From: a bacterium
Lineage (GTDB): Bacteria; UBP6; UBA1177
DNA: 64,000 nt
Direction: 5' to 3'
NCBI GenBank assembly: GCA_017405875.1
Contig: JAFQZM010000030.1
Coordinates: 1 to 64,000, forward strand
Position numbers and translations under genes: made by a program. The notes beneath the pieces were generated by a model. The model did not search any database. It had not been told where the DNA came from and worked only from the letters and a program-made list of their open reading frames with translations. Below are positions 8,232 through 29,182 of the stretch, one piece after another (the first letter of the stretch is position 1; the number at the start of each line of letters is the position of its first letter).

Positions 8232-8972
8232 GTGAGCGGTCCTGAAGTCATAAATTTCGATAAGGTTTCGTTTTTTTACGGGAAGAACGAGATCCTGCGC
8301 GATGTCACCTTTTCGGTAAAAAAGGAGGATTTTTTCGCGATAATAGGTCCTAACGGCGGCGGAAAGACGACGATCCTCAGGCTCATGCTCGGTTTTATCA
8401 AGCCGACAAGCGGAAAGATCACGGTTTTCGGCGAAGAACCGGGCAAGAATTTTACGAAGATAGCGTCTGTTCCGCAGTTTTCTTCCCACGACAGGCTTTT
8501 TCCGATAACAGTTGAAGAGGTGGTTCTTCAAGGTTTGGTCAAATCGACTTCTTTCCTTCCTTTTTACAGCAAAGCTGAGAAGGCAAAAGCAGAAGACGCG
8601 ATGAAAAAACTGGGAATTTTAGACCGTGCAGATGCACGTTTCGGCGATCTGTCGGGCGGACTCAAACAGCGGACTCTTATTGCTAGGGCGATAGTGAGCG
8701 ATCCTGAAATTCTCCTTCTTGACGAGCCTGTCGCAAGTGTTGACAGCTCGGTCGAAAAGGATATTTACGAGATGCTTCTTGACATGAATAAGAAGATCAC
8801 AATCGTCATGGTTTCTCACGACATCGGTTTTGTTTCGAGTTTCGTAAACAAGATAGGCTGCGTGAACAAAATTTTCGTGGAACACGCTTCGAAAGACGAG
8901 ATGTGCTGCCTTGAAGAGCATCACGCATACAGCGGAAAAACAACGATGATTCACCATAAGTGCGGGATTTAA
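8232..8972 (+). CDS. Metal ABC transporter ATP-binding protein, ZnuC/MntB-like
   Basis: 246 aa starting at GTG 8232 (GGAG 6 bases upstream). All ABC motifs are intact: Walker A GPNGGGKTT, signature LSGGLKQR, Walker B LLLDEPVASVD, H-loop VMVSHD. The closest family by its permease partner is the ABC-3 class that imports zinc, manganese or iron. The C-terminus is His/Cys-containing (MCCLEEHHAY, MIHHKCG), which would suit metal sensing, though that is inference. The permease ATG follows the stop codon directly. No substrate-binding protein lies next to the pair. Confidence 0.88.
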   Translation: MSGPEVINFDKVSFFYGKNEILRDVTFSVKKEDFFAIIGPNGGGKTTILRLMLGFIKPTSGKITVFGEEPGKNFTKIASVPQFSSHDRLFPITVEEVVLQGLVKSTSFLPFYSKAEKAKAEDAMKKLGILDRADARFGDLSGGLKQRTLIARAIVSDPEILLLDEPVASVDSSVEKDIYEMLLDMNKKITIVMVSHDIGFVSSFVNKIGCVNKIFVEHASKDEMCCLEEHHAYSGKTTMIHHKCGI

Positions 8973-9785
8973 ATGGATTTTTTTAGTGCACTCTCGACAT
9001 ATTCATTTTTGCAGAATGCGGTTGTGGCTGCGCTTTTGGCGGCACTTTCATGCGGAATTTCGGGAACTTTCGTCCACATAAACCGCATAACTTTTATTGC
9101 TGGCGGAATTGCTCACGCGGTTTTGGGCGGAGTGGGTGCTGCGGTATTTTTCGGATTTTCGCCCTTTGCAGGGGCAATAGTTACGGCTCTTATTTTCGCG
9201 GTTCTGCTCGGTATAATCAGGCTTAAGGCGACGCAGCACGAAGACACGGTGATAGGAGCGATGTGGGCGTGCGGAATGTCGGCAGGTATAATTTTCATAT
9301 ATCTGACACCGGGTTATGCGGTAAATCTCAACAACTATCTTTTTGGAAATATTCTGCTCGTCTCTAAAAGCGACATAACGGCTCTTTCGGTGCTCGCAGC
9401 GCTTGTAATTCTGGTAAGTGCGCTCTTTTTCAGGCAGTTCAAGGCTGTTAGTTTTGATGAGGAAAATGCCGAGCTTCACGGTGTAAAAGCCTCGCTCGTC
9501 TATATTCTCATGCTTTCGGTCATTGCGCTCACAGTCGTTGTTCTGATGAAAGTTGTCGGTTTGATTCTCGTTATCGCTTTCATGACTCTGCCTGCTGCGA
9601 CATCGGCGGTTTTCTGCCGGAAAGTTGGTGCGATAATCGTGCTTTCGATAATTCTGAGCTTCGTTTTCAGCATGAGCGGACTTTTCGTTTCATACACATG
9701 GAACCTTCCGACCGGAGCGGTCATCACGCTTGTTTCGGGCGCGGTTTACGCCGCCTCTCTTGTGTTTTCAAAAATCAAAGGATAG
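8973..9785 (+). CDS. Metal ABC transporter permease, ZnuB-like (ABC-3 family)
   Basis: 270 aa inner-membrane protein with about eight hydrophobic segments. Typical ABC-3 features are visible: GTFVHINRITFIAGGIAHAV near the N-terminus, then GVKASLVYILML, the VVGLILVIAFMTLPAATS segment and a final GLFVSYTWNLPTGAVI block. It starts immediately after the ATPase stop codon, so translation is probably coupled. Zinc, manganese or iron are all possible substrates. Confidence 0.88.
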   Translation: MDFFSALSTYSFLQNAVVAALLAALSCGISGTFVHINRITFIAGGIAHAVLGGVGAAVFFGFSPFAGAIVTALIFAVLLGIIRLKATQHEDTVIGAMWACGMSAGIIFIYLTPGYAVNLNNYLFGNILLVSKSDITALSVLAALVILVSALFFRQFKAVSFDEENAELHGVKASLVYILMLSVIALTVVVLMKVVGLILVIAFMTLPAATSAVFCRKVGAIIVLSIILSFVFSMSGLFVSYTWNLPTGAVITLVSGAVYAASLVFSKIKG

Positions 9786-9790
9786 AGAAT

Positions 9791-10408
9791 TTATACGATT
9801 TTCGGCGTTATTTTTCCACCGGTTTTTTCGACCATTTCGGCGATGAATTTTTCGACGGAAGCAATCGGGATTTTTACTGTGACTGAGCTTCCTTTTTCGG
9901 TATAAGTTGTCGATTTTATTTCTAATCCTTCAAATCTGCCGATATAACTCATTGCGATTCCTGTGAAATCGAAAGGAATATCAAGAGTAAGTTCTTTTTT
10001 GATGATCACGGTTTCAATTTCACATGAATCAAGTGCCGCTCTCGCCGATGCGCCGTAAGTTCTGGTGAGTCCGCCCGTTCCGAGTTTGATTCCGCCGTAA
10101 TATCGGACACTTGTCACTAAAACATTGAAAAGTTCTTTACGCAGAATTTCGTTGTAGATCGGTAGTCCTGCCGTGCCGGAAGGTTCGCCGTCGTCGCTGT
10201 AGCGGAAAGTTGTGATCTCTCCTTCGCCTAAAAGGTAGGCAAAGCAGATGTGAGTGCAGTCGTAATGTATTTTCCAGAGTTTTTTGACGGTTTCTTCAGC
10301 ATCTTCTTTTGTCAAAACAGGAAAACACTGAGATATAAAACGGCTGTTTTTCTCTTTTATTTCAATTGGTTGAGTTGATTTAAAGATTGTTTTGTACAGC
10401 TCTATCAT
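9791..10408 (-). CDS. yigZ: YigZ/IMPACT family protein
   Basis: 205 aa, the usual length. The N-terminal UPF0029 domain shows SRFISQCFPV, HICFAYLLG, DDGEPSGTAGLPI and VRYYGGIKLGTGGLTRTYG, all diagnostic. The family is linked to translation regulation through similarity to eukaryotic IMPACT, but the bacterial role is unsettled. It overlaps the end of lgt by 29 bases and is the last gene of the lspA-lgt-yigZ operon. Confidence 0.92.
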   Translation of the reverse strand: MIELYKTIFKSTQPIEIKEKNSRFISQCFPVLTKEDAEETVKKLWKIHYDCTHICFAYLLGEGEITTFRYSDDGEPSGTAGLPIYNEILRKELFNVLVTSVRYYGGIKLGTGGLTRTYGASARAALDSCEIETVIIKKELTLDIPFDFTGIAMSYIGRFEGLEIKSTTYTEKGSSVTVKIPIASVEKFIAEMVEKTGGKITPKIV

Positions 10409-11231
10409 TATTCTTTTTTTCTTTTAAAGTCTCTTCCGACGGAAGAACGAGAATAAGCACTCCGATTGTGAAAGTTATGATCGCAACGAGCTGAGACGTC
10501 GAAAACAGGTTATTGAAGAAAAGTCCGCGGTCGTCAGCCCTGAAAAATTCGATTATGAAGCGGAAAGTGCCGTACATCGTGAGCCAGAGTCCCAGAAGTT
10601 CGCCGTCCTTTTTTTTGTGTTTGCGGAAGTAGAACCAGAGAACGAGAAAAATCGAAGATGTCACGAAAGTCGAGACTAACTGAGTCGGAAGGACGGGAAG
10701 GGGAAGATCCTTCAAATTAAGAAGAATGTCTCTTGCAAACTGGTTTTTTGCGCTTAAACCGTATCGGAGGAATGTTTCTGCAAACGGAGATGCCGAAATC
10801 TCGCCGAAGCAGCAGCCGTTGAGGTAGCATGCGGATCTGCCGAGTCCGAGCCCGAAAGCAAGACCTAAAATGTAGCAGTCCAGATATTTCATGAGCGGCG
10901 CTTTGTGCTTCGTGAACCACCAGACTGCGGTGGGGAGTCCGAAAATGACGGTTCCGTAAAACGCGAGTCCTCCTTTCCAGACCGCAAAAATCGCAAGCGG
11001 TTTCTGGATGTAAATGTCCAGAAATCCGTCAAAAACGATGTGCATGGCTCTTGCACCGAGATAACCCATTGTAGTAGTGATTACAGCACCTTGCAGTGCC
11101 ATTTTTATGTCGAGTTTATTGCGTCTGATTTCCCACCATGTCAGAAAATTTCCGACAATGACGCAGATAAAAACTACAAAATAGAAGGATGAAACAGAAA
11201 AATCACCGATCGAAAAAAGGGTGGGGCGCAT
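10380..11231 (-). CDS. lgt: Prolipoprotein diacylglyceryl transferase
   Basis: 283 aa polytopic inner-membrane enzyme that attaches diacylglycerol to the lipobox Cys of prolipoproteins, the first step of lipoprotein maturation. The Lgt signature is present (GLGLGRSACYLNGCCFGE), preceded by GGLAFYGTVIFGL and followed by PTQLVS. The ATG overlaps the lspA stop (TAATG). The pairing of both lipoprotein-processing enzymes in one operon fits the lipobox proteins encoded nearby. Confidence 0.95.
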   Translation of the reverse strand: MRPTLFSIGDFSVSSFYFVVFICVIVGNFLTWWEIRRNKLDIKMALQGAVITTTMGYLGARAMHIVFDGFLDIYIQKPLAIFAVWKGGLAFYGTVIFGLPTAVWWFTKHKAPLMKYLDCYILGLAFGLGLGRSACYLNGCCFGEISASPFAETFLRYGLSAKNQFARDILLNLKDLPLPVLPTQLVSTFVTSSIFLVLWFYFRKHKKKDGELLGLWLTMYGTFRFIIEFFRADDRGLFFNNLFSTSQLVAIITFTIGVLILVLPSEETLKEKKNNDRAVQNNL

Positions 11232-11755
11232 TATTTTGCCTCTTTTTTATTTTTTTCGCGCTTCGGCTGAAGGAAAAGAAGCTCAAAAGCAAGAAGGAAA
11301 ATCGCAACGACGATAGCGACATCGGCAATGTTGAAAGTCGGCCAGTGGTAGATTTCCCCTGCATGCCAGTCGATGAAGTCGATTACGGCAAAACCTCTGA
11401 AAAAGCGGTCGTAAAGGTTGCCGAACGCGCCGGCAAGGATAAGTCCGTAAATTATTTTCATGAATTTAGTTTCGGCGAAAGCGAGAAGAAGATAGAGCAC
11501 CAAAATTGTGATAAGTGACGAAAAACCCAAGAAAATCAGCTGCCTTACTGAATCAGGGAAGTTTGCGCCGAGCCCCCACAGAGCACCTTTGTTTTCGACG
11601 TAAATGAAGTTCCACCAGCTTTCAAAAACGACGATTCCTTCTTTTCCCTTGAGGGTTAAAGCCCAGTTTTTGGTGAAAAGATCAATGAGAAAGACCGGAA
11701 GAGTCACGGTGAGCAGATATATTGCGTTTTTCCAGTTGATTTTTGCGATTTTCAT
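11231..11755 (-). CDS. lspA: Lipoprotein signal peptidase (signal peptidase II)
   Basis: 174 aa inner-membrane aspartyl protease with four hydrophobic segments that cuts before the lipidated Cys. The two catalytic blocks are present: GAFGNLYDRFFRG and FNIADVAI. GAGGA precedes the ATG. It is the first gene of lspA-lgt-yigZ, divergent from the acidic lipoprotein at 11892. Confidence 0.95.
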   Translation of the reverse strand: MKIAKINWKNAIYLLTVTLPVFLIDLFTKNWALTLKGKEGIVVFESWWNFIYVENKGALWGLGANFPDSVRQLIFLGFSSLITILVLYLLLAFAETKFMKIIYGLILAGAFGNLYDRFFRGFAVIDFIDWHAGEIYHWPTFNIADVAIVVAIFLLAFELLFLQPKREKNKKEAK

Positions 11756-17314: not shown

Positions 17315-18334
17315 TCACAAATTCAGTTTCAGTTCTCTGTTTGAAAGCAGTGATTCAAGAGTGGTTCTGTAATCGGCGATTCCTTTGATTTCTAAGATTG
17401 TTGTGATTTTTCGTCCTGCGTCTTTGCTGGATGCGCCGCAGTGATAGAGTTTTTCGTTTTCTCTTCCGAAATCAATAGCGATATACCTGTCGTGGATTCG
17501 ACCAAGAGAAGCGATGAAATTTATTTTTACATCGGGATATTCCTTCAAAAAATCGTTGTATTCGGTGAGTTTCAATGGATTTTTTCCTTTATTGTCACTA
17601 ATTATAGTGATTTGAATCCCGCTTTTCGCACTTGCGAGATGGCGCAAAGTCTTTAATCCCAGATAATCATCAATTACAATGATGGAATGTTCTGCAGTTC
17701 CATAAATTTTCTGATAAGCGAAATCGGCTTTGAACGGTTCGCCGTCAAGAATCAGTATTTCCTCGTTTCTGATTCCCGTGTCGAAAAGTTTCATAAAATC
17801 TGACAATTCATCCTTTTTAACCATATTTTTTTCAATATCCTGAATTTTATCTGACAGTTTTTCCTGCTTGTTTTGAAGCAGTTTCAAATCTTCATAAGGC
17901 AGAAGCGGAGTGTTTTGCAAAATATAATGCGCTACTTCGACAAAAACTTCCATTATCAAAATGCTTGCTTCAATCGCTCTGTCCGTGTGCAGCACGGATG
18001 TCAGCATCGAAAGTCCGTGTTCGGTGTAGACATAAGGCAAATATTTTGAATACTTACCCTGTTCCAATTCTAAGATGCCAAATTGGCATCTTAGAATTTC
18101 GTGATACTCCTCTCTTGAAATTTGAAAGCAGAATTTGGGTGGAAATCGTTTGATATTTCGCTTCATTGCCCTGTTGAGAGCAGCTGTTTCAACTCCGAAA
18201 TAAGCAGCAATGTCGCTGTCAAGCATGACGCGAAGACCACGGACCTCATAAATCTGTGATTTTACTTTTTCCTTGTCGATCTGATCTAAGAGAATGATTT
18301 CTTTTTTGTCAATGATTTCAATTTTATCAGTCAT
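17315..18334 (-). CDS. ORF6N-domain protein with HKD-like C-terminal domain
   Basis: 339 aa. Residues about 15-110 form an ORF6N DNA-binding domain (GLRVMLDSDIAAYFGVET, KRFPPKFCFQ, YLPYVYTEHGLSML), typical of phage and mobile-element genes. A coiled segment follows (LKLLQNKQEKLSDKIQDIEK). The C-terminal part contains RIHDRYIAIDFG and LYHCGASSKDAG, which resembles one half of a phospholipase-D/HKD-type site, as seen in many ORF6N proteins; activity is unproven. The gene is bracketed by exact 21-bp direct repeats and contains a 33-base palindrome. Probably a mobile or defence-associated gene. Confidence 0.82.
   Translation of the reverse strand: MTDKIEIIDKKEIILLDQIDKEKVKSQIYEVRGLRVMLDSDIAAYFGVETAALNRAMKRNIKRFPPKFCFQISREEYHEILRCQFGILELEQGKYSKYLPYVYTEHGLSMLTSVLHTDRAIEASILIMEVFVEVAHYILQNTPLLPYEDLKLLQNKQEKLSDKIQDIEKNMVKKDELSDFMKLFDTGIRNEEILILDGEPFKADFAYQKIYGTAEHSIIVIDDYLGLKTLRHLASAKSGIQITIISDNKGKNPLKLTEYNDFLKEYPDVKINFIASLGRIHDRYIAIDFGRENEKLYHCGASSKDAGRKITTILEIKGIADYRTTLESLLSNRELKLNL
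18066..18098. repeat. 33-base palindrome inside the ORF6N gene
   Basis: AATTCTAAGATGCC, then AAATT, then the exact reverse complement GGCATCTTAGAATT; all pairs match apart from the single central base. It codes for part of LRCQFGILELE, where ORF6N proteins vary in sequence. Confidence 0.85.
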
Positions 18335-18618
18335 GTTTACACACTCATATTATACAATAAACACAAGATTATTATAGCATAAATTCTAAAAATATCAAAC
18401 TTAATAATAAATATTTCTCATCAATATATCAATAAAACGCTTGGAAAATTTAAAAAAATTAAGTTGTGTGATAGGATCGGCACAATTGGGCAAACTCTGT
18501 CTGCACAAATTCAAAAAAATCTCGCTGATTCTTTGCTTTAAATCGCCGCTTTAACTTGCATTTTTCAGCGAAATAAGGCAAAAATATCCGGCGAATGGAT
18601 ATAGGTGGGAACCCGACT
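18335..18618. other. Intergenic start of the restriction island
   Basis: An AT-rich gap between divergent genes. It holds the right-hand 21-bp repeat (18548-18568) and, on the plus strand, AGGTGG 10 bases before the chosen methyltransferase start. No small gene is evident. Confidence 0.4.
18548..18568 (+). repeat. 21-bp direct repeat, right copy
   Basis: Identical to 17289-17309. The following bases (TTTCAGCGAAAT) also partly match the left copy. The motif reads CGCTTTAACTTGC; its reverse complement resembles the GCAAGTTAAACCG of the repeats around the DUF4143 gene. Confidence 0.8.
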
Positions 18619-19602
18619 ATGCGAGAAATAAAAGTAGACATAAAAGAAAACGAGATTTTGAACTCTGATCCGAAACTTCTGGAGATTCTTCTCAAAGATA
18701 ATTCTTCCGGGAAAAACATTATCTGGGCAACAAACGATTACGCTTCAAACGGCGAAGGATTCAGCGCGGATGACCAGATTTTGCCTGATTTGATAACTGG
18801 TAAAAACGGAGAACTTATCAAACCGAGAACGGAAAAGACAAAGGAGGAAAAACTTGCCAGAATAAGGGACAAAGCGGAAGTTTTTACGCCTTCATGGATC
18901 TGCAACCAGATGAACAATCTTGTGGACGAAGCTTGGTTCGGGCGCAAGAACCCATTTAATGTCGAAGGTGACAAGAGTTGGAAAGCGAAAAGGGATAAAA
19001 TCAGGTTTCCGAAAGACAAAACCTGGCTGGATTATGTCAGGACTACTCGGCTTGAAATCACTTGTGGCGAAGCTCCGTTCCTTGTCAGCAGATACGATAC
19101 TGTTTCAGGAGAGATAATCCCGATCAAAGAGCGCATCGGACTTCTTGATAGAAAGCTCCGTGTTGTTTCGGAAAATGCAACCACTCAAAAACAATGGTAT
19201 TTTTGGGCAAAAGAAGCTGTAAAAAGTATTTATGGTTTCGAATGGCAGGGTGACAATGTTCTGCTTGCCAGAGAGAATCTGCTTTTCACATTTTGCGATT
19301 ATCACGAGAAAAAATTCAGGAGATATCCGAGCAAAGAACAATTCCGCAGAATAGCGGACATCATTTCGTGGAATATCTGGCAGATGGACGGATTGAAGTT
19401 CGTAATCCCGAACAGTTGTCACGAAGAACGCTCAATACAATCAGGCTTCTTTTTTGGTGCAGAAGAAGAAAAACTTCATCCTTGTGAAGGCTGTGAAAAG
19501 AATGATCCGAACAAACACAACGGTACTTACTGCTACATTATGGATTGGAAAGAAGGCAAAAAAGTTAAATTTGCGGATTCGTTTAACGGGAGGCAAAAAT
19601 GA
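18619..19602 (+). CDS. Methyltransferase N-terminal half, R-M system subunit M
   Basis: 327 aa from the ATG at 18619; an ATG at 18595 is possible. It carries the early motifs of an Eco57I-type N6-adenine methyltransferase: AEVFTPSWICNQM (motif X type), LEITCGEAPFLVSRYD (SAM-binding motif I, with CGEAP instead of the usual CGSG), and SIYGFEWQGDNVLLARENLL (motif II/III). The catalytic NPPY is absent. A Cys-rich tail (HPCEGCEKNDPNKHNGTYC) may bind zinc. Its stop overlaps the next start (ATGA), and that protein carries NPPY. I infer the two chains together make one methyltransferase. This family is often labelled 'restriction endonuclease subunit M'. Confidence 0.85.
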   Translation: MREIKVDIKENEILNSDPKLLEILLKDNSSGKNIIWATNDYASNGEGFSADDQILPDLITGKNGELIKPRTEKTKEEKLARIRDKAEVFTPSWICNQMNNLVDEAWFGRKNPFNVEGDKSWKAKRDKIRFPKDKTWLDYVRTTRLEITCGEAPFLVSRYDTVSGEIIPIKERIGLLDRKLRVVSENATTQKQWYFWAKEAVKSIYGFEWQGDNVLLARENLLFTFCDYHEKKFRRYPSKEQFRRIADIISWNIWQMDGLKFVIPNSCHEERSIQSGFFFGAEEEKLHPCEGCEKNDPNKHNGTYCYIMDWKEGKKVKFADSFNGRQK

Positions 19603-22600
19603 CATTTAATGCGGCTTTTAAGTATAAACTGATTTACATCTTTGCTATTCCTGATGAAGATCACAAAGGTCTGCTGAAAATAGGAGAGACAACTGTTTCG
19701 ACAGACAAAAATTTAGAAGAGCTTTCTCCAAATTCAAAAGAGTTAAACCAAGCTGCCAGGGAGCGTATAAGACAATATACCGGAACTGCGGCAATCGATT
19801 TCAGGGTGTTGCATACTGAATTGGCTGTTCGTTCTGAGTTAAACAGACTCATCGCTTTTTCAGATAAAGATGTCCATGCTGTTTTGAAGCGTTCGGGGAT
19901 TAAACCTCACAATTTCCCTGAAAATAAAGGAAGAGAATGGTTCAAAGTTGATCTGGAAACAGCCCAAAATGCTATCAAAGCTGTAAAAGAAGGAAGACAA
20001 TCCCTTCAAGGAGGCGAAATATTCGATGGAATGACCCCGATTGTTTTTCGTCCCGAACAGAGAAAAGCAATTGATGAGACAAAATTCCGCTTTGAAGTTA
20101 GTGACCACATGCTTTGGAACGCAAAAATGCGTTTCGGCAAAACATTGACAGCTCTGCAGCTTGTGAAAGAATGCGGGTTCCAGAAAACGATCATCATCAC
20201 TCACAGGCCTGTTGTAAACGAGAACTGGTTTGACGATTTTCATAAGATTTTTTATGATACTGATTATAAGTTCGGATCTAAAACCCAAGGCGAAACTATA
20301 GAAAAACTCATTGAAAAAGAGGATACAAAATTTGTCTATTTCGCTTCGATTCAGGATTTAAGAGGCTCTGAAGCAGCAGGCGGGAAGTATGATAAGAACA
20401 TTTACCAGTTTTTGATAGATTGGGATCTTGTAATTACTGATGAAGCACACGAAGGAACTCAGACGAAACTCGGACAAAGCGTTACAAATCTTTTGATTGA
20501 CCACAAAAAGAAGCCGAAACTGCTTGATTTGTCGGGGACGCCTTTCAATATTCTGAGCAAATACAGCAAAGACGAAGTTTATACTTGGGATTATGTAATG
20601 GAGCAGAGAGCTAAAACCGATTGGGAAAAATACCATTTCGGAGACAATAACCCTTATGCCGGACTGCCTAAATTACAGATTTACACATATAATCTCGACA
20701 AATTTCTTCCTGGCTATATTGATGCGGAAGATTCTGCTTTCAATTTCCATGAATTTTTCAGAGTTTGGACAGGGAACCCTGCAAAAGATTTCAAACAAAT
20801 GCCGTCAGATGCAAAAGTCGGTGATTTTATTCACGAAAAAGATGTCAGCAGATTCCTTGATCTCCTTTGCAAAAGTGCTGAGGAGAGCAATTATCCGTAT
20901 TCTACCGAAGAATTCCGCAATTATTTCAGGCACTCTCTATGGATAGTTCCAGGAGTTAAGGAAGCTAAGGCATTATCGGCGTTGCTTAGCAAACATCCGG
21001 TTTTTGGGAATTTCGAAAGAGCCAATGTTGCAGGAGACGGAGACGAAGAGGAGGAATACTCTGATGCAATGAAAAAAGTTCGCAACGCTTTCGGAGAAGA
21101 TCCGTCGGAAACATATTCAATCACTATTTCCTGCGGCAGACTGACTACCGGCGTGACTGTTCCTGAATGGACTGCTGTATTTATGCTTGCAGGAACATTC
21201 TCGACATCTGCTTCAAGTTATATGCAGACGATATTCCGCGTTCAGTCTCCGGCGAATATAAACGGAAAAATCAAAGAAAACTGCTATGTTTTTGACTTTG
21301 CTCCCGACAGAACTTTGAAAGTTGTTGCCGAAACCGCCCGCATTGCTTCGCGTCCGGGTGAAAACAACCCGAAAGACGAAGTTGTTTTAGGCGAGTTCCT
21401 GAATTTCTGTCCGATCATTTCGATGGAAGGCTCGAATATGAAGCCTTATGATGTGCCGAAATTGATGCAGCAGCTAAAGAAAGTGTATACGGAGAGAGTT
21501 GTCAAAAACGGTTTTGATGATCCGCATATTTACAATGAAAATTTGTTGCGTCTGGATGAAGTCGAAATCAAGGATTTTGAAGAACTTAAAAAAATCGTCG
21601 GAGTCTCAAAGCAAAGCAAGAAAACAGAGGAGATAGACATTAACGATCAGGGCTTTACCGATGAAGAATATGAAATAATAAAAAAGGCAGAAAATAAGCC
21701 GAAAAAGGAACGTTCCAAAGAGGAACTGGCTCTTCTTGAAGAAAAGAAGAAAAAACTGGAGACAAAACAAAAGGCAATTTCTATTCTTCGAGGAATTTCC
21801 ATCCGCATTCCGCTGTTGGTTTACGGTGCGGATGTTCCTTCAGATGAAGATATTACGGTAGAAAATTTTGCCTCTAAGATAGATCCGCAGTCATGGCAGG
21901 AATTTATGCCGAAAGATGTAACGAAAGAACTGTTCAAAAAGTTCACCAAATATTATGACAAAGATATTTTTGTGGCTGCCGGAAAACGGATCCGTCAACT
22001 TGCAAAAGCGGCAGACGGATTGCCGCCGACAGAGCGTGTTCAGAAAATCGCAGCACTTTTTGCGACATTCAAAAATCCAGACAAAGAAACAGTGCTCACC
22101 CCGTGGCGTGTAGTAAATATGCACATGAGCGAGTGTTTGGGCGGTTATGACTTTTTTGATGAATCGCATGAAGATGTGCTGGGCGAACCGCGTTTTGTCA
22201 ATCGCGGCGAAGTCACGGCAGAAACCTTGGCAAATACAAAAGCCCGGATTTTGGAAATCAATTCCAAAACTGGCCTGTATCCGCTTTATGTCACATACAG
22301 CATTTACCGCAAACGCTGTGAAGAATGCAAAGATGCACTTACACTTGAAAAACAAAAAGAGCTTTGGAATCAGACCATAAAAGACAATGTTTTTGTAATC
22401 TGCAAAACACCTATGGCAAAAAGCATAACAAAACGAACATTGGCAGGTTTTACCAATGCAAAAATCAATGCTCACTATTTCGAAGATTTGATCAATCAGT
22501 TAAAAAGCAAACCCGATCAATTCAGAGAGAAAGTAATCAAAGGAAGTTATTGGAATAGAGGAGATAAAGAAATGAAATTCAATGCAATAGTCGGAAACCC

Positions 22601-23636
22601 GCCGTATCAGGAAGAATCTGTTAAACAAATATCGTCAAAAAACGGACAAACGCCAAGAACAAATGTTTTTCATTATTTTCAAATAGCAGCAGACCAGCTT
22701 TCTTCTAAATTTGTTTCTTTAATTTATCCTGCTGGAAGATGGATTCATAGAAGTGGCAAAGGCCGGGGGTTAGCACAATTCGGGCTAGAACAAATAAATG
22801 ACAAGTCACTAGAAAAGATAGACTTTTATTTACATGCACAGGATATTTTTCAAGATGTGGACATTTTTGATGGAATTTCTATGGTTCTAAAAAATAAGGG
22901 TAAAACTTCGGATGGTTTTACATACATATATCACGAAAATGGATTTAGTTTTTCTACTCATTTGGATAATCCTGGTGACAGTTTAATGCCGCTTAATCCA
23001 AGGGATGGTCTTATTGTTGGTAAAATATCGCAGTTCGTAGAAAAACATAAGCTGCTCTATTTACACGACAGAATATTGCCTAGAAATTTATTTGGCATAG
23101 AAAGCAATTTTGTAGAAAGTAATCCGTCTGAAGTTAGGGAAGGATCTAAAAATTCTATAGTTGGTGAATCCGAGATAAAATTGTTTACCAATGACCGTGC
23201 TGGAAAAGCAGGACGGGCAAAATGGTATATTGCTAATCGTAATGTTATTAAAACAAACCAAGAATATATCAACGAATGGCAAGTAGTTGTTTCGAGCGCA
23301 AATGCTGGCGGGCAAAAGAGAGATAATCAAATTGAAATTATAGATAATCATTCTGCTTTTGGGCGTTCTCGTGTTGCGTTGGCTTCTTTTAAAACGGAAA
23401 TTGAGGCACAAAACTTCTATAGGTATGCAAATACATATTTAATTCGTTTTATGTTTTTAATGACAGACGAAGCTCTAACATCTCTTGGCAAGAAAGTTCC
23501 TGACATTATGGACTATACAAATACGAATAAGTTCCTTGATTTTTCGAAAGATTTGGACCAGCAATTATATGAGTTATTTGACTTGGATTCCGACGAAATA
23601 CGTTTCATCGAAAGCAAGGTGAGTGAGAGGGAGTAA
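19599..23636 (+). CDS. GIY-YIG nuclease-helicase-methyltransferase fusion
   Basis: 1345 aa, GGGAGG before the ATG. Residues 9-120 look like a T5orf172/GIY-YIG nuclease: KLIYIFAI, LLKIGETT, RIRQY, a Glu in AVRSELNRLI and GREWF. Residues about 150-600 are an SF2 helicase: AKMRFGKT (Walker A), VITDEAHEG (DEAH), LLDLSGTPFNI, and TISCGRLTTGVTVPEWTAV with MQTIFRVQSP. A charged helical stretch follows. From about residue 990, FNAIVGNPPYQEES supplies the catalytic motif IV of an Eco57I-like N6-adenine methyltransferase, then a likely target-recognition region. Motifs X and I-III sit in the upstream protein. A restriction-modification enzyme is the natural reading. Confidence 0.88.
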   Translation: MTFNAAFKYKLIYIFAIPDEDHKGLLKIGETTVSTDKNLEELSPNSKELNQAARERIRQYTGTAAIDFRVLHTELAVRSELNRLIAFSDKDVHAVLKRSGIKPHNFPENKGREWFKVDLETAQNAIKAVKEGRQSLQGGEIFDGMTPIVFRPEQRKAIDETKFRFEVSDHMLWNAKMRFGKTLTALQLVKECGFQKTIIITHRPVVNENWFDDFHKIFYDTDYKFGSKTQGETIEKLIEKEDTKFVYFASIQDLRGSEAAGGKYDKNIYQFLIDWDLVITDEAHEGTQTKLGQSVTNLLIDHKKKPKLLDLSGTPFNILSKYSKDEVYTWDYVMEQRAKTDWEKYHFGDNNPYAGLPKLQIYTYNLDKFLPGYIDAEDSAFNFHEFFRVWTGNPAKDFKQMPSDAKVGDFIHEKDVSRFLDLLCKSAEESNYPYSTEEFRNYFRHSLWIVPGVKEAKALSALLSKHPVFGNFERANVAGDGDEEEEYSDAMKKVRNAFGEDPSETYSITISCGRLTTGVTVPEWTAVFMLAGTFSTSASSYMQTIFRVQSPANINGKIKENCYVFDFAPDRTLKVVAETARIASRPGENNPKDEVVLGEFLNFCPIISMEGSNMKPYDVPKLMQQLKKVYTERVVKNGFDDPHIYNENLLRLDEVEIKDFEELKKIVGVSKQSKKTEEIDINDQGFTDEEYEIIKKAENKPKKERSKEELALLEEKKKKLETKQKAISILRGISIRIPLLVYGADVPSDEDITVENFASKIDPQSWQEFMPKDVTKELFKKFTKYYDKDIFVAAGKRIRQLAKAADGLPPTERVQKIAALFATFKNPDKETVLTPWRVVNMHMSECLGGYDFFDESHEDVLGEPRFVNRGEVTAETLANTKARILEINSKTGLYPLYVTYSIYRKRCEECKDALTLEKQKELWNQTIKDNVFVICKTPMAKSITKRTLAGFTNAKINAHYFEDLINQLKSKPDQFREKVIKGSYWNRGDKEMKFNAIVGNPPYQEESVKQISSKNGQTPRTNVFHYFQIAADQLSSKFVSLIYPAGRWIHRSGKGRGLAQFGLEQINDKSLEKIDFYLHAQDIFQDVDIFDGISMVLKNKGKTSDGFTYIYHENGFSFSTHLDNPGDSLMPLNPRDGLIVGKISQFVEKHKLLYLHDRILPRNLFGIESNFVESNPSEVREGSKNSIVGESEIKLFTNDRAGKAGRAKWYIANRNVIKTNQEYINEWQVVVSSANAGGQKRDNQIEIIDNHSAFGRSRVALASFKTEIEAQNFYRYANTYLIRFMFLMTDEALTSLGKKVPDIMDYTNTNKFLDFSKDLDQQLYELFDLDSDEIRFIESKVSERE

Positions 23637-23678: not shown

Positions 23679-26216
23679 ATGGTAAAAATTTTTGTGAGTT
23701 ATGCGCATACCGATGAGACATTTTTAACAGATAATTTAATTCCCATTTTAAATGAATTAAAGTCGGAAGGTGTTGCCGACTATTTTTATGACAGATTGAT
23801 AATGCCAGGTGAGGATTTGTTTAAGAAAATTGATGAAAACATGGATGAGTGTGATATATCAATATTATTACTTTCAGAAAGTTATTATCAATCAAATTCT
23901 TGTAAAAAAGAAAAATCGCGACTGCTAAACAGAAGAATTTTAGATGGAATTTATCTTTTACCTATGGTTGTATCTTCTTGTGATTGGGAAAGGGACGACG
24001 TCATAAAAAACAATTTGCTTTTAAATACTGATGCCAAAGAATTAGATCAATTATCTCCAAATGAATTAAAAACAGAGTTTGAAAAGATAAAGGAAAAATT
24101 ATCTTTGATTGCCAGGGATATAGAAACAATAAGTGCACTTGACTTTTCAAAATCATTTACAGATTTGCTTGAAGATACCGATGTTTTGAAAACATCTCAT
24201 CGTTTAAAAGATACTTTATTATTATCTGATGTGTTTATTTATCCTATATTGAAGAAAAATGTGCTTGATAATGAAAAAGAAGAAATAATTTCTTCAGATA
24301 TGTTTTTTGAAGATTCTAAGGATAGTCGATTCATTTTTATATCCGGGGATGATGTGTCAGGTAAGACTTCTTTAATAAAAAAATTCATCTGTGATATTAA
24401 AGAAAAAAATTTTATACCACTACTTTTTTCCTCAACAGATGACCTCGGCGGAGATTTTCTTACAAAAAGATTTAAAAAACAATTTGCTGTTGAAATGCCT
24501 GACAAAGAAATTAAAAGACTGCTTGGATCTAATAAAGAACGCATCATAATATTTGTTGATGACTACCATAAAATTAGCAACAGAAGTAAGTTTGTTAATA
24601 AGATCGATTCATGTTGTAAAATTGTATGCACCGTAGATTTAATATATTCTCTTGATTTGGAGATAGAAGAAATACATGAGAATATTTCAAGATATTCTAT
24701 AAAAGAACTTTCGCCTTCAAAGCGAAATGATTTGATACAGAAATGGTTAAGGCTTGGAGAAGATCCATTCCATTCAGATGATTTTTCTCGCGTAAAGGAA
24801 ATAGATAAAAAAACTGAATTAATAGAATCTATAACATATAAATCATTAAATGGCGGAATTATGCCGGCATACCCCTTTCTAATTTTGTCTATATTAAGCA
24901 ATTTCGAAACTTTAAATCGCCCACTTAATCAACAAGTAACCTCGTACGGCTATTGTTATGAAGCTTTAATAATTATAGCTTTAACAAAAGTTGGGTTAAA
25001 AAGTGATGATCAAATAGCAGGTGCAATAAATTTCTTGTCTAATTTCGCTTACGAACTTTATAAGTTAGGATATCACGAAATGGCCAACATGGATTTCCAA
25101 GTATTTCTCGATAATTATGAAAAGAAATTTTCTATACCTTTTAAAAAAGATATTTTTATAGATAAGCTTTTGACAAGCAGATTAATTATAAATAGTCTTG
25201 GCAACTATGGGTTTGATTATAAATATATTTATTATTTTTTTGTGGCCATATATTTCTCTAATAATTTTGACGAATTAAAAGAAGAGATAGCAAATATTTG
25301 CAAAAACATTCATAGAGATGAAAATGCTTATATAGCGATTTTCTTTTCTCACAATGCAAAATCAGAAGATTTCTATAATATGTTGCTGGAAGAGGCTAAT
25401 TCTCTTTATTCTAATATTGATATTGCAACTTTGGCAAAGGAAGATATGGGATTTTTTAATAATAGTTGTCAATGGTTGAAATTTACATTACCAAATGAAA
25501 GACACAATTATAAAATAGAACGAGCAAACGCTTTAAAACGACCAGAGAAAGAATACTCACATGATGAAGAGATACCTGACGAAACACACGATCAGTATAT
25601 GTTAAACTTGCGTAAATCAATAAAATTGACTGAAGCAATTGGAATTATTGCAAAAAACAGGTATACTGCTATTCAAAAATTACTTGTCAAGAAACTTTTG
25701 ACAGCTGCTATAGATTTAAGTTTAAGAGGATTAAATTCATTTTTTGATTTATTTAGAGAAACTAAAAGTCAAGAAAATATCATCAATTTTATTGCAGAGT
25801 TTATAAAACAGGAGGAAAACAAAAGGGGTCGAGTAATTAAAGATGAAGAATACCAAAGAATTGCCAATAAAATCTTTTGGAGACTGAATTTTTTTCAAAT
25901 ATATGTTGTGCTTACAAAAACTATTCGATCAATTGGTTCGGAGCATTTGATCCCTTTTGTTGATCAAATTACCAAAGAAAAAGAAACTCCATCATATCAA
26001 ATAATTTTAGAAGGAATGAAAATGACATATGAAAAGAATGTGGATACCAATAATCTCTCTAATTATATAAAAAAATCGAATAATTACTCTCTTATAGCAA
26101 AAAATATATTGCGAATGTTTGTTATAGATTATTGTAGAATGAATCCTGTGAGATTTAATGAAATACAAAAACTAAGCAATAGGTTAGAAATAAAAATAGA
26201 TAAGTTAAAAAAGTGA
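23679..26216 (+). CDS. TIR-STAND (NLR-like) defence protein
   Basis: 845 aa, strong ribosome site (GAGGAGA). Residues 1-130 are a TIR domain: KIFVSYAHTDE, YDRLIMPGEDLFKKI, ISILLLSESYYQS, and SCKKEKSRLL with the expected catalytic Glu of NAD-cleaving TIRs. From about residue 220 a P-loop NTPase of STAND/NACHT style follows: FISGDDVSGKTSLIKK (Walker A) and RIIIFVDDYHK (Walker B, near 288). The remaining 500 residues are helical, without a family I recognise, and are likely the sensor. The gene is far more AT-rich than the core genes, a sign of transfer. I infer an abortive-infection sensor that degrades NAD after detecting a phage component. Confidence 0.82.
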   Translation: MVKIFVSYAHTDETFLTDNLIPILNELKSEGVADYFYDRLIMPGEDLFKKIDENMDECDISILLLSESYYQSNSCKKEKSRLLNRRILDGIYLLPMVVSSCDWERDDVIKNNLLLNTDAKELDQLSPNELKTEFEKIKEKLSLIARDIETISALDFSKSFTDLLEDTDVLKTSHRLKDTLLLSDVFIYPILKKNVLDNEKEEIISSDMFFEDSKDSRFIFISGDDVSGKTSLIKKFICDIKEKNFIPLLFSSTDDLGGDFLTKRFKKQFAVEMPDKEIKRLLGSNKERIIIFVDDYHKISNRSKFVNKIDSCCKIVCTVDLIYSLDLEIEEIHENISRYSIKELSPSKRNDLIQKWLRLGEDPFHSDDFSRVKEIDKKTELIESITYKSLNGGIMPAYPFLILSILSNFETLNRPLNQQVTSYGYCYEALIIIALTKVGLKSDDQIAGAINFLSNFAYELYKLGYHEMANMDFQVFLDNYEKKFSIPFKKDIFIDKLLTSRLIINSLGNYGFDYKYIYYFFVAIYFSNNFDELKEEIANICKNIHRDENAYIAIFFSHNAKSEDFYNMLLEEANSLYSNIDIATLAKEDMGFFNNSCQWLKFTLPNERHNYKIERANALKRPEKEYSHDEEIPDETHDQYMLNLRKSIKLTEAIGIIAKNRYTAIQKLLVKKLLTAAIDLSLRGLNSFFDLFRETKSQENIINFIAEFIKQEENKRGRVIKDEEYQRIANKIFWRLNFFQIYVVLTKTIRSIGSEHLIPFVDQITKEKETPSYQIILEGMKMTYEKNVDTNNLSNYIKKSNNYSLIAKNILRMFVIDYCRMNPVRFNEIQKLSNRLEIKIDKLKK

Positions 26217-26349: not shown

Positions 26350-27768
26350 ATGACCTTACTCGATGAAATAAAATCCGGCGAGAGCCGAACCCTCGAATTT
26401 AAGCAGGAACTTCCGCAGGATGCACGAAAGTGGGTGAAGACAATTGTCGCTTTTGCTAACGGTGCGGGCGGCAAATTCGTGATCGGGGTGAACAATCAGC
26501 GTGAATTTGTCGGAATTCCGAAAAGTGTTGATCTGTTCGAGCTGAAAGACAACATTTCCGACACTATCGCCCATACTTGCGAACCGCAGATCATGTTTGA
26601 CATAACGGCTGAAAACATAGAAAACGCACAGCTTCTTGTTGTCACAGTTTTTCCTGGAAACACCACGCCGTATTATGTGAAATCGCAGGGAAAGGAAAAC
26701 GGAACCTATATCAGGCTCGGTGCGACGACACGCAATGCCGACTGGACTGCTTTGGATGAACTTGCAAACAGAGGCCGCCATGTTTATTATGACGAACTGC
26801 CGTTTACTTCGCTGAAAGTTGAAGCTGCTGATATCAACTATCTCTGCAAGGATTTTTCAGAACGCGCTGAGAGGAAGATCACAAAGAACGAATTGAAGAA
26901 TTTGAATCTTTTTACAGGAGTAAAGCAGAATGTAGCCACGAACGCTTATGCCATACTTCTTGGAAAACACGATTACACCTCGCGTATCCAGTGTGCAAGA
27001 TTCAGAGGGACTGAGCGCGTCGATTTTCTTGATAAAAAGGAATACGAAGGGCCGCTTTGCGAGCAGATAGACGGCGCATACAAATTTGTTCTAAACTATC
27101 TCAGCATGGCGGTAGAAATAAACGGTATTGTCCGCAAAGAAAGATACGAACTTCCGCCGAAAGCCATCCGCGAGCTGATCATAAATGCTGTGATTCATCG
27201 GAATTACCAGATGAGTTCCAGTGTTCAGGTCGCAGTTTATGACGACAGAGTAGAGATTTCTTCTCCCGGCAGCATATATGGTTCTTTGACACTGGAAGAA
27301 GCCTTGTCAGGCCGCTCTTCTGTCAGAAACAGGACGCTTGCACGCACTTTAGAAAAAATAGATGTTGTTGAAGGCTGGGGAACCGGATTTAAGCGCATTT
27401 TTTCTCAATGTGATGAATACGGCGTCAAAAGACCTGAGTTCTTAGAAATCGGCGATATGCTGCGGGTGAATTTTTATCGTCCCTCTTACACCAAAATCGG
27501 CGATAAATCGGCGATAAATACTGAAGTCGGCGATAAATCGGTGATAAATACTAAAATCGGCGATAAATCGGCGATAAAATTTAAAGATAAGATTCTGGAA
27601 TATCTAAAAGATAACACCGAGGCCAAAACACAGGATATTTCGCTGTATATCGGGCTTAAACTATCGAGAACAAAGGATTATCTTTCCGAACTTGTTGAAG
27701 AGGGAAAAATCGTAGCCAACGGTGCGAACAAGAACAGAACTTATTCACTGGTAAAAGAAAGAGAGTAA
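26350..27768 (+). CDS. AlbA_2 DNA-binding / ATPase-domain protein
   Basis: 472 aa. The N-terminal AlbA_2 (Schlafen-like) domain shows SRTLEFKQELP, FANGAGGKFVIGV, and PYYVKSQGKENGTYIRLG with TTRNAD. The middle holds an HATPase_c_4-type domain (PPKAIRELIINAVIHRNY, DDRVEISSPGSIYG, RNRTLARTLEKI, EGWGTGFKRI). Three 10-residue repeats (KIGDKSAINT type, residues 382-411) link to a winged-helix tail. Proteins of this build are often called RecG-like but lack the helicase; they are thought to be regulators and are frequent in R-M and defence islands. The ribosome site is weak. Its 5' end recurs as two fragments at 29200 and 29707. Confidence 0.85.
   Translation: MTLLDEIKSGESRTLEFKQELPQDARKWVKTIVAFANGAGGKFVIGVNNQREFVGIPKSVDLFELKDNISDTIAHTCEPQIMFDITAENIENAQLLVVTVFPGNTTPYYVKSQGKENGTYIRLGATTRNADWTALDELANRGRHVYYDELPFTSLKVEAADINYLCKDFSERAERKITKNELKNLNLFTGVKQNVATNAYAILLGKHDYTSRIQCARFRGTERVDFLDKKEYEGPLCEQIDGAYKFVLNYLSMAVEINGIVRKERYELPPKAIRELIINAVIHRNYQMSSSVQVAVYDDRVEISSPGSIYGSLTLEEALSGRSSVRNRTLARTLEKIDVVEGWGTGFKRIFSQCDEYGVKRPEFLEIGDMLRVNFYRPSYTKIGDKSAINTEVGDKSVINTKIGDKSAIKFKDKILEYLKDNTEAKTQDISLYIGLKLSRTKDYLSELVEEGKIVANGANKNRTYSLVKERE
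27493..27582 (+). repeat. Three 30-bp in-frame tandem repeats
   Basis: Units 27493-27522, 27523-27552 and 27553-27582 encode KIGDKSAINT, EVGDKSVINT and KIGDKSAIKF. ATCGGCGATAA repeats inside each unit. The copy number may vary between strains. Confidence 0.9.
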
Positions 27769-27776
27769 GCAAACCC

Positions 27777-27804
27777 CAATGACCACCACAAGTGCTTGGA
27801 GGAA
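27777..27804 (+). repeat. Repeat of a gene leader, functional copy
   Basis: Partner of 26222-26249. It supplies the GGAGG ribosome site of the DUF1016 gene starting at 27811. Confidence 0.7.
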
Positions 27805-27810
27805 ATATAA

Positions 27811-28836
27811 ATGAATAAAGAAATTGTAAAAAACGATGAAATTCAAACAAATGAAAGACTGAATGTTCTTGCCAATACTATTGTTGACGAAGTGAATCTC
27901 ACAAAATCGTGTCTTGCACTTAATATAAGTGCCGTCATGGTCAAGACTTATTGGTCTGTTGGACATCACATTGTCGAGTTCGAGCAGGACGGTGGAAAAA
28001 AGGCTAAATACGGAACTTCAATGCTGACAAATCTTGCTAAAATTCTGACAATGCGTTTGGGAAGAGGTTACAGCCGCCCAAATCTCAATAATATGCGGAA
28101 GTTTTACCTGCTATATCCACTTTGTCAGACTTCTGACAAATTAACATGGAGCCATATCTGCGAGTTAATAACAATAGACGATGATCTTGAACGTAGTTTT
28201 TACGAAAAAGAATGTGTGAAAGAAAACTGGGATGTCCGTTCCCTCCGCCGCCAGATGGATTCCGGTCTGTTTTTGAGACTTGCGGCAAGCAAAGACAAGG
28301 AAGGAATTCTTGAACTGGCAAAAACAGGCATTGAAATTCAAAAACCAATGGATGTCGTAAAAGACACATACATGCTTGAATTTCTTGGACTTCCTGAAAT
28401 GGAGCGTTATTCCGAAAGTGATCTGGAACAGCGGATTATTGATAATCTTCAAACCTTTCTGCTTGAACTCGGTAAAGGGTTCGCGTTCATCGGACGGCAG
28501 TATCCGATTACAATAAACAATGTTCATTATCATGTGGATTTGGTTTTTTATCACCGGATTTTGAAGTGCTTTGTGCTGATTGATTTAAAGAAAAATTCAG
28601 TAAAACACGAAGATATCGGGCAAATGAACATGTATATGGGCTATTTTGCAAAGGAAGAAAACGAACCGAACGACAATCCGCCTATAGGAATTATTCTGAG
28701 TCACAACAAAGATGAACTGCTTGTTGAGTATGCAACTTATGGAATGGACAGCAATCTGTTTGTCTCAAAATATGAACTGTATTTGCCAAACCGCGAGGAA
28801 CTGCGCAAATTGGTTAGCGGAATATTGTCAGAATGA
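27811..28836 (+). CDS. DUF1016 family PDDEXK nuclease-like protein (YhcG-like)
   Basis: 341 aa. The N-terminal DUF1016_N half has MVKTYWSVGHHIVEFEQ, KYGTSMLTNLAKIL and FSRPNLNNMRKFY-like text (YSRPNLNNMRKFYLLYP). The C-terminal half has the nuclease-type core (FAFIGRQYPI, HVDLVFYHRILKCFVLIDLK). The family is often found within type I and related restriction-modification loci, in keeping with its position here; the biochemical role is unproven. GGAGG precedes the ATG. It is followed by a short fragment gene and a truncated second DUF1016 copy. Confidence 0.88.
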   Translation: MNKEIVKNDEIQTNERLNVLANTIVDEVNLTKSCLALNISAVMVKTYWSVGHHIVEFEQDGGKKAKYGTSMLTNLAKILTMRLGRGYSRPNLNNMRKFYLLYPLCQTSDKLTWSHICELITIDDDLERSFYEKECVKENWDVRSLRRQMDSGLFLRLAASKDKEGILELAKTGIEIQKPMDVVKDTYMLEFLGLPEMERYSESDLEQRIIDNLQTFLLELGKGFAFIGRQYPITINNVHYHVDLVFYHRILKCFVLIDLKKNSVKHEDIGQMNMYMGYFAKEENEPNDNPPIGIILSHNKDELLVEYATYGMDSNLFVSKYELYLPNREELRKLVSGILSE

Positions 28837-28846
28837 GAGGAATGTT

Positions 28847-29182
28847 TTGAAAGCTGAATATTCTGCGAGCAATTACCGCAATCTCTTAAAACAGAAAGAA
28901 GAATTCATTTCGCATAGAAACGACCCTGTAAAGGAACAAGTAAAGGAACAAGTAAAATCGCTGATTCTTGTTTTAGATGGGGAAAAAAGTAAAAAAGAAT
29001 TAGTGGAATTGCTAAACTTGAAAGGTTTGAGAAATTTTTCAGAAAAGTATACTTCCCCAGCTCTGGAAGGTGGTTTTATAGAATTGACGCAACCGGATTC
29101 TCCGAACAGTCCTACGCAGAAGTATCGCTTAACGGCGAAGGGTTTGGCTTTAAAAAAGGAAATTCTGGAAATTACGAGATAA
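28847..29182 (+). pseudogene. C-terminal winged-helix fragment of an AlbA_2 or Fic-type protein
   Basis: 111 aa from a TTG at 28847 (GAGAGG 6 bases upstream, 10 bases after the DUF1016 stop). It contains a short repeat (VKEQVKEQVK) and the winged-helix tail common at the C-terminus of AlbA_2/RecG-like and Fic proteins (KKELVELLNLKG, YTSPALEGGFIELT, PTQKYRLTAKG). The expected N-terminal 300 or so residues are absent, so it is most likely the remnant of a longer gene, although the ribosome site may still allow a small protein. Confidence 0.65.

What the first reader, a model, noticed from the sequence alone, without database searches (positions are those of the whole stretch)
18619..23636. Methyltransferase split across two genes and rejoined to a GIY-YIG nuclease and helicase
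Seen: the first gene has the Eco57I-type motifs VFTP, CGEAPFL and YGFEWQGDN...LLARENLL but no NPPY. The second has a T5orf172/GIY-YIG-like N-terminus, a DEAH helicase and only then NPPYQ with a recognition region. The genes overlap by ATGA. Known: Eco57I-like enzymes carry all of these motifs in one chain in the order X-I-IV. Inference: the two chains form one SAM-binding and catalytic site, with the helicase-nuclease inserted between motif III and IV. I recall the family in databases but know of no biochemical description. The likely novelty is the nuclease assignment (GIY-YIG, not PD-(D/E)XK) and the obligate two-chain methyltransferase.
Basis: partly seen in the sequence, partly recalled or inferred. 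Interest (0 to 1): 0.82.

Follow-up and report, generated by a model that had tools for sequence, protein, structure and literature searches.

The report
Restriction system with shared half-methyltransferase
This is a bacterial anti-phage restriction-modification system whose DNA-methylating enzyme is split over two genes, and the larger protein carries a second, apparently dead copy of the missing half, so one DNA-reading, catalytic half seems able to join either a live or a dead partner; in relatives that half is swapped like a cassette to change which DNA is targeted.

Summary
Gene 1 (P1) is a canonical N-terminal half of a gamma-class adenine methyltransferase (motifs X, I, II, III; no NPPY). 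Gene 2 (P2) is a T5orf172/GIY-YIG-like domain, helicase, helical linker, a SECOND N-half, then the C-half (NPPY plus recognition region). The second N-half keeps the Rossmann layout but has lost SAM features: LE[IM]NSK[ST]GLY in 51/51 relatives, no acid in motif II. So there are two N-halves and one C-half, not one enzyme with a helicase inserted. Relatives show the C-half fused to P1, fused to the dead N-half, or free. Two phages carry P1 plus C-half alone. Co-occurrence is complete wherever contigs allow the test. Models of both pairings give full methyltransferase folds, closest to CamA. The C-half is evolutionarily uncoupled from every other domain (rho 0.04-0.23 versus 0.66-0.89 among the others), and three relatives carry inverted C-half cassettes whose repeats lie on the NPPY codons. 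Best reading: an ATP-dependent RM system in which P1 and the C-half methylate, while the dead N-half and a C-half recognise sites for restriction. Partner exchange is inferred. No biochemistry was found in open literature.

The parts
18619..19602 (+). P1: free N-half of a gamma-class N6-adenine methyltransferase (motifs X, I, II, III; no motif IV). 327 aa from ATG 18619; the longest ORF starts at 18595.
   Evidence: (PDLC03390, 425 bits)
18874..18891 (+). P1 motif X, AEVFTP (invariant in 16 of 16 aligned relatives)
19051..19083 (+). P1 motif I, LEITCGEAPFL (SAM loop, like the EPACAHGPFL type of M.TaqI)
19231..19257 (+). P1 motif II, YGFEWQGDN, keeping the acidic residue
19381..19392 (+). P1 motif III, QMDG
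19599..23636 (+). P2: GIY-YIG-like nuclease, helicase, helical linker, degenerate methyltransferase N-half, C-half with recognition region (1345 aa). RBS GGGAGG just before its ATG; ATGA overlap with P1.
19599..20018 (+). T5orf172 / GIY-YIG-type domain; Tyr13, Lys27-Ile-Gly29, Arg56, Asp89, His93, Glu113 conserved in at least 65 of 66 relatives (Ile28 57 of 66)
20043..21473 (+). DEAH helicase (ResIII)
22092..22556 (+). Degenerate (pseudo) methyltransferase N-half: X' VLTPWRVVN 22092-22118, I' ILEINSKTGLYPLY 22248-22289, II' VFVICKTPMA 22389-22418
22572..23633 (+). C-half: strand 4, catalytic NPPYQ (NPPY codons 22596-22607) and target-recognition region; the exchangeable cassette

Best explanation
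An ATP-dependent restriction-modification system whose methyltransferase is divided at the motif III/IV boundary. P1 is the SAM-binding N-half. The C-half (NPPY catalytic loop plus recognition region) sits at the end of P2, behind a second N-half that has the fold but not the SAM site. P1 joined to a C-half is the modification enzyme. The pseudo-N-half joined to a C-half is a methylation-dead reader of the same DNA site that lets the attached helicase and GIY-YIG-type nuclease act on unmethylated DNA. One recognition cassette therefore serves both activities. Shown by sequence and models: the two N-halves and one C-half, loss of SAM motifs in the P2 N-half, natural fusions in both combinations, P1+C-half alone in phages, obligate co-occurrence, and cassette-like inheritance of the C-half. 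Inferred: that P1 displaces the pseudo-N-half (or pairs with another C-half copy), that the complex restricts DNA, and that the base modified is N6-adenine.
For: Motif integrity: P1 motifs I and II are kept almost throughout the relatives, while the pseudo-N has LE[IM]NSK[ST]GLY in 51 of 51 and two other subtypes have D-x-x-x-K-x-G-x-[YF/F]-like loops with no motif II acid; L021 (IAGTSGEY) is an exception to the Lys. Fusions: P1+C-half in L005, L090, L113, phage FNU4 and L138, and partly in L114; pseudo-N+C-half in the window and 68 other loci; the C-half as its own gene in L004, L014, L017, L020, L046, L119. C-halves fused to P1 are up to 50% identical to C-halves fused to the pseudo-N. AF2: P1+C-half fusion L090 pLDDT 92.5, pTM 0.89; window pseudo-N+C-half pLDDT 84.4, pTM 0.79; both match the adenine methyltransferase CamA best (E 2.8e-12 and 7.9e-15). 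Phages FNU4 and PTm1 keep P1+C-half without helicase or pseudo-N. Co-occurrence: among 151 genomes of one family, all 18 intact, non-edge P1 loci have an adjacent C-half and all 13 informative P2 loci have an adjacent P1; exceptions are fragments or contig ends. A distant second lineage repeats the scheme: a ~230 aa N-half with FLEPACGDGNFL next to a pseudo-N (KSGVFL)+C-half gene and a GIY-helicase gene.
Against: No biochemical, methylome or phage-plating data. The pseudo-N loop is too conserved to be a mere relic, so it may do something unaccounted for. In the two-gene form the pseudo-N is covalently attached to the C-half and would have to be displaced.
Confidence: 0.68

Rival explanations
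1. P2 is a self-sufficient Type IIG/ISP-like enzyme whose unusual motif I still binds SAM; P1 is an accessory regulator or a second, partial methyltransferase.
For: P2 has the complete X'-I'-II'-IV-recognition layout and folds as a full methyltransferase. M.TaqI also lacks the canonical first glycine (general knowledge). The loop is extremely conserved.
Against: The motif II acid is gone in all pseudo-N subtypes and Lys replaces the first Gly in nearly all. P1 is obligate. Phage methyltransferases keep P1+C-half and drop the pseudo-N. P1, not the pseudo-N, has canonical SAM motifs in both lineages.
Confidence: 0.12
2. The complex is permanent and higher-order, like Type III Mod2: one P2 C-half stays with the pseudo-N and only reads DNA, while another C-half pairs with P1 and methylates. 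No partner exchange during the reaction.
For: Both pairings are predicted stable. In three-gene forms the C-half is a free subunit and could be present in two copies. The EcoP15I precedent of a dimeric methyltransferase methylating one strand (PMC4490356 abstract).
Against: In two-gene forms every C-half is covalently attached to a pseudo-N, so P1 must still replace one somewhere. No stoichiometry data.
Confidence: 0.15
3. The pseudo-N pocket has a new ligand (for example a nucleotide or a phosphate) and acts as a sensor that gates the helicase-nuclease.
For: Two loops that normally hold SAM carry invariant or near-invariant Lys residues (NSK[ST]G and CKTPMA) in this subtype.
Against: No ligand evidence; the CKTP lysine is absent from the two other subtypes; conservation could reflect contacts with the C-half or the helicase.
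Confidence: 0.12
4. One reading: only one N-half exists (P1) and the helicase-nuclease is inserted between motif III and IV of a single enzyme.
For: The motif order across the two genes does read X-I-III, nuclease, helicase, IV.
Against: A second N-half with X'-I'-II'-III' precedes NPPY in P2 in all three subtypes and is predicted to complete the fold. In three-gene relatives the C-half gene starts right at NPPY with no helicase on it.
Confidence: 0.04

Closest known systems
REBASE/PADLOC 'MTase_II' PDLC03390 (P1 relatives), PDLC03375 (C-half relatives) and 'REase_MTase_IIG' PDLC03626 (P2 relatives)
   Same: Same protein families: P1 425 bits to PDLC03390, window P2 63 bits to PDLC03375; three-gene and fused relatives hit all three.
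   Different: The database treats each as a methyltransferase in its own right; here the first two are complementary halves and the P2 family carries a second, degenerate N-half.
Type ISP enzymes LlaGI / LlaBIII
   Same: Nuclease, helicase, linker, gamma methyltransferase, recognition region in one polypeptide order; both appear in the structure hits.
   Different: P2 has a T5orf172/GIY-YIG-type nuclease instead of PD-(D/E)XK (general knowledge for LlaGI), its methyltransferase N-half is degenerate, and a separate P1 supplies the SAM half.
DnmA-YeeB-YeeC cluster (PMC9973331)
   Same: Adenine methyltransferase plus superfamily II helicase plus T5orf172 protein in a conserved defence-associated cluster.
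   Different: DnmA is a complete MmeI-like methyltransferase in one chain; no split or second N-half is described.
CamA (7lni and others)
   Same: Best structural match of both models, across N- and C-halves.
   Different: Orphan single-chain methyltransferase without helicase or nuclease.
R.Hpy188I (PMC2630997)
   Same: GIY-YIG nuclease with Lys instead of Tyr in the YIG half-motif, as in P2 (KIG, Lys27).
   Different: Stand-alone Type IIP enzyme without ATP-dependent translocase.
Type I hsdS shufflons
   Same: Inversion among silent cassettes changes specificity (PMC4948785).
   Different: In the relatives here the exchanged unit is half of the methyltransferase catalytic domain plus the recognition region, with repeats on the NPPY codons.

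Membership tests
Gamma-class N6-adenine methyltransferase | Motif order X-I-II-III-IV then recognition region | tested here: met
   Met over P1 plus the P2 C-half, and in one chain in the natural fusions L005, L090, L113
Gamma-class N6-adenine methyltransferase | NPP[YFW] catalytic motif | tested here: met
   GNPPYQ in the window; at least 90% conserved in C-halves
Gamma-class N6-adenine methyltransferase | SAM-binding motif I and motif II acid in the same chain as NPPY | tested here: not met
   P2 has EINSKTGLY and VICKTP; the acid and GxG are only in P1
Type IIG (Eco57I-like) | R, M and S in one polypeptide, sufficient for modification | tested here: not met
   Active N-half is a separate gene; sufficiency of P2 itself not testable
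Type IIG (Eco57I-like) | No ATP-dependent helicase | tested here: not met
   ResIII helicase, 60.5 bits
Type ISP (LlaGI/LlaBIII) | Single chain nuclease-helicase-linker-methyltransferase-recognition order | tested here: met
   Order in P2
Type ISP (LlaGI/LlaBIII) | PD-(D/E)XK nuclease and complete active methyltransferase in the same chain | tested here: not met
   T5orf172 N-terminus and degenerate N-half
T5orf172 / GIY-YIG superfamily | Profile match above curated cut-off | tested here: met
   PF10544 29.0 bits, cut-off 20
T5orf172 / GIY-YIG superfamily | Active-site residues Tyr (GIY), Tyr or Lys (YIG), Arg, Glu | tested here: met
   Tyr13 66/66, Lys27 66/66, Arg56 65/66, Glu113 66/66; assignment of roles by analogy with Hpy188I
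T5orf172 / GIY-YIG superfamily | DNA cleavage activity | not testable with these tools
   needs biochemistry
Phase-variable shufflon | Silent cassettes with inverted repeats and a recombinase | tested here: not met
   Not in the window genome (single C-half); present in relatives L064, L103, L136 (recombinase seen at L136 only)

The most novel reading that the evidence does not exclude
One exchangeable half-methyltransferase (catalytic loop plus recognition region) is shared by two competing N-halves: a live one that methylates and a dead one that directs helicase-driven cleavage, so partner choice sets modification versus restriction; specificity is changed by inverting or swapping that half at the NPPY codons; and phages carry lone live N-halves to capture the host's C-half and turn restriction into self-methylation.
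Probability: 0.3. Interest if true: 0.88.

Novelty: new variant of a known kind. Interest (0 to 1): 0.72.

Why it matters
If right, hundreds of genes now annotated as separate 'Type II methyltransferases' or 'restriction endonuclease subunit M' are half-enzymes that only work in pairs, which would explain failed assignments of methylation motifs when they are tested alone. It would be a new way to couple modification and restriction to one recognition unit, a new unit of specificity exchange (half a catalytic domain rather than an S subunit), and a candidate route of phage counter-defence by a lone half-enzyme. All of this is testable with small constructs.

Tried and rejected
Sequence search of solved structures with P1 and P2 C-terminal profiles gave nothing. 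A joint P1+P2 model was not possible (single chains only, no concatenation), so the natural fusion L090 was used as proxy. Rejected: a helicase inserted into one methyltransferase (a second N-half is there); P1 as a pseudogene fragment (conserved and co-occurring in Clostridia, Bacteroidales, Bacilli, Treponema and others); the KSG-type N-half as a counter-example of an active single-chain enzyme (each of six loci turned out to have its own canonical ~230 aa N-half gene nearby). Hits of the P2 C-terminal profile restricted to the C-half in ~500 aa proteins were first taken for P2 without P1 and then explained this way. Profile-profile comparison of the pseudo-N subtypes is uneven: some pairs are strong (PNb-KSG 99.4%), some weak (PN-PNb 13%), and part of the signal is the shared NPPY tail, so a common origin of all pseudo-N subtypes is likely but not proven. 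Literature searches for a split Eco57I/GIY-YIG/helicase system found no description; only open-access papers were searched.

Full report
WHAT IS THERE. P1 (18619-19602, alternative start 18595) and P2 (19599-23636) overlap by ATGA, and P2 has a strong ribosome-binding site inside the end of P1. P1 has no Pfam hit but a 425-bit hit to a PADLOC/REBASE 'MTase_II' model. P2 has T5orf172, ResIII helicase and Eco57I hits. The neighbours look like a defence island (TIR-NTPase, AlbA_2, YhcG nuclease, ORF6N protein). Within the small phylum searched (28 genomes) only the window genome and one congener carry P1, so it is accessory.

THE SECOND N-HALF. In an alignment of 42 P2 C-termini the stretch before NPPY contains TVLTPWRVVN (motif X position), LEINSK[ST]GLYPLY (motif I position) and CKTPMA (motif II position), more conserved than the recognition region. 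Two further P2 subtypes have the same layout with D-[IM]-[AS]-[GS]-K-x-[GA]-E-F or D-L-Y-[MVI]-K-S-G-[LMI]-[YF] in motif I (L021 lacks the Lys). In nearly all, the first glycine of GxG is replaced by Lys, and the motif II acid is missing. P1 keeps the SAM features: LE[IV][TSA]CGE[AG]P[YF] in most and Y-[GA]-[FY]-[ED]-[WYF]-Q-G-D in nearly all (the unmatched motif I entries in that regex count were not inspected one by one). So there is one live and one apparently dead N-half. That the dead one cannot bind SAM is inferred from motifs, not shown.

ONE C-HALF, TWO PARTNERS. Domain mapping of 122 loci gives: P1 next to GIY-helicase-pseudoN-C-half (69 loci, the window type); P1, C-half and helicase in three or more pieces (9); P1 fused to the C-half with a separate GIY-helicase-pseudoN gene (L005, L090, L113, and L114 with a late split); P1+C-half without helicase in phages FNU4 (fused) and PTm1 (two genes). 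Eleven more loci are cut by contig ends. L014 (Bifidobacterium longum) has its C-half gene interrupted by an IS256 element. C-halves fused to P1 are up to 50% identical to C-halves fused to a pseudo-N, and free C-halves up to 56% outside the cassettes, so the same family sits on both partners. By fusion logic, the C-half touches both N-halves.

STRUCTURE. AlphaFold2 on the natural P1+C-half fusion L090 (656 aa) gave pLDDT 92.5 and pTM 0.89. On the window's own P2 650-1345 it gave pLDDT 84.4 and pTM 0.79, with strands at motif I (235-238), motif II (282-286) and just before NPPY (345-350) of that segment. Both match CamA first, then BrxX/PglX, M.BseCI, M.TaqI, LlaGI or LlaBIII. The split lies between strand 3 and strand 4 of the Rossmann sheet (order 3-2-1-4-5-7-6, general knowledge), so each half is a contiguous half-sheet and a C-half can pair with only one N-half at a time. 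This last step is inference; coordinates could not be superposed.

CO-OCCURRENCE. In 151 genomes of one family (that of L064, a Prevotella), P1 was found in 22: 18 have an adjacent C-half or P2, and the other four are a fragment, a pseudogene with stops, or at contig ends (G072, G106, G150, G179). P2 with the pseudo-N was found in 16: 13 have adjacent P1 and three are truncated by the contig (G128, G143, G177).

A SECOND LINEAGE. Six Prevotellaceae loci (L128-L133) at first looked like P2 C-halves without P1: ~510 aa proteins with KSGVFLREI before NPPY. Each has a ~230 aa gene directly upstream with fully canonical EVFTAE, FLEPAC[GN]xGNFL, YG[IV][ED] and no NPPY, plus a GIY-helicase gene downstream. 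Its N-half is only distantly related to P1 (21-26 bits by HMM; profile-profile probability 96.5%), yet its C-halves are up to 66% identical to those of the window lineage (L131 with L052). The scheme is therefore old, and the C-half moves between lineages.

THE C-HALF AS A CASSETTE. In 47 two-gene loci, pairwise identities of P1, nuclease, helicase, linker and pseudo-N rise and fall together (Spearman 0.66-0.89). The C-half follows none of them (0.04-0.23), whether one takes its catalytic 95 residues or the recognition part, while these two parts follow each other (0.60). The pairs are not independent, so these are descriptive values. L064, L103 and L136 carry extra C-halves beside P2, and inverted repeats of 28-39 nt (92-97%) lie on the codons of AIIGNPPYQ. 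L136 has a tyrosine recombinase next to the cassettes and a transposase-like gene within them. The silent cassette of L064 (13026-14126) is 82% identical to the expressed C-half of L103, consistent with switching. The window genome has a single C-half.

NUCLEASE. The N-terminal domain keeps Tyr13, Lys27-Ile-Gly, Arg56 and Glu113 in 65-66 of 66 relatives. Lys in place of the YIG Tyr is known from R.Hpy188I (PMC2630997). Cleavage is plausible, not shown; T5orf172 domains can also merely bind DNA.

MECHANISM. Most likely P1 and a C-half methylate; the pseudo-N and a C-half read the same site for the helicase-nuclease; methylation of the site blocks that reading. Phages with P1+C-half alone fit self-protection. 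Seven viral contigs (L007, L009, L010, L011, L012, L111, L118) carry a lone P1-type gene with downstream room and no adjacent C-half. A C-half profile found none anywhere in the L007, L009, L011 and L012 records while recovering it in control records; in L118 it found only weak matches in other proteins. No bacterial locus of the 80 with sufficient room was of this kind, except two with broken downstream genes (L050, L089). A lone live N-half could hijack the host C-half; this is speculation.

KNOWN OR NEW. Closest in layout is Type ISP; closest in content is the DnmA-YeeB-YeeC cluster (PMC9973331), which has a complete single-chain methyltransferase. Database models treat the halves as separate enzymes. 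I found no description of the split, the dead N-half or the NPPY cassette exchange, with the limit that subscription papers and REBASE notes were not searchable. I rate it a new variant of a known kind, interest 0.72.

Noticed in passing
L064:11960-14126, L103:11924-14127, L136:7980-10546: Extra C-half cassettes beside P2, with inverted repeats on the NPPY codons; L136 also has a tyrosine recombinase (10510-11346) and a transposase-like gene (8958-10190). Looks like a specificity shufflon.
   Followed up: partly
L007:5929-6669, L009, L010, L011, L012, L111, L118: Viral contigs with a lone P1-type N-half keeping the SAM motifs and no adjacent C-half; in L007 it lies just upstream of terminase- and portal-like genes. 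Possible anti-restriction factor.
   Followed up: partly
L007:4420-5091: A second lone methyltransferase N-half of another family (phrog_1071 'DNA methyltransferase', N6_Mtase), with motif I (AAGTGG) but no NPPY, in the same phage.
   Followed up: partly
L128-L133: Three-gene relatives: ~230 aa canonical N-half, KSG-type pseudo-N plus C-half, GIY-helicase; C-halves up to 66% identical to those of the window lineage.
   Followed up: yes
window 23679-26216: TIR domain joined to a DS8-antiphage-like NTPase (NF053861 395 bits, below its cut-off of 790; PDC-S60).
   Followed up: no
window 17315-18334 and 26350-29182: ORF6N protein (PDC-S05), AlbA_2 protein, YhcG PD-(D/E)XK nuclease (PDC-S02) and a short Fic-like C-terminal protein: the system lies in a defence island.
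   Followed up: no
L014:7911-10367: Bifidobacterium longum plasmid: the free C-half gene is interrupted by an IS256 transposase gene.
   Followed up: partly
P2 residues 884-897 and 931-940 (window 22248-22289, 22389-22418): The dead SAM loops are among the most conserved parts of P2, with conserved Lys; the reason is unexplained.
   Followed up: no
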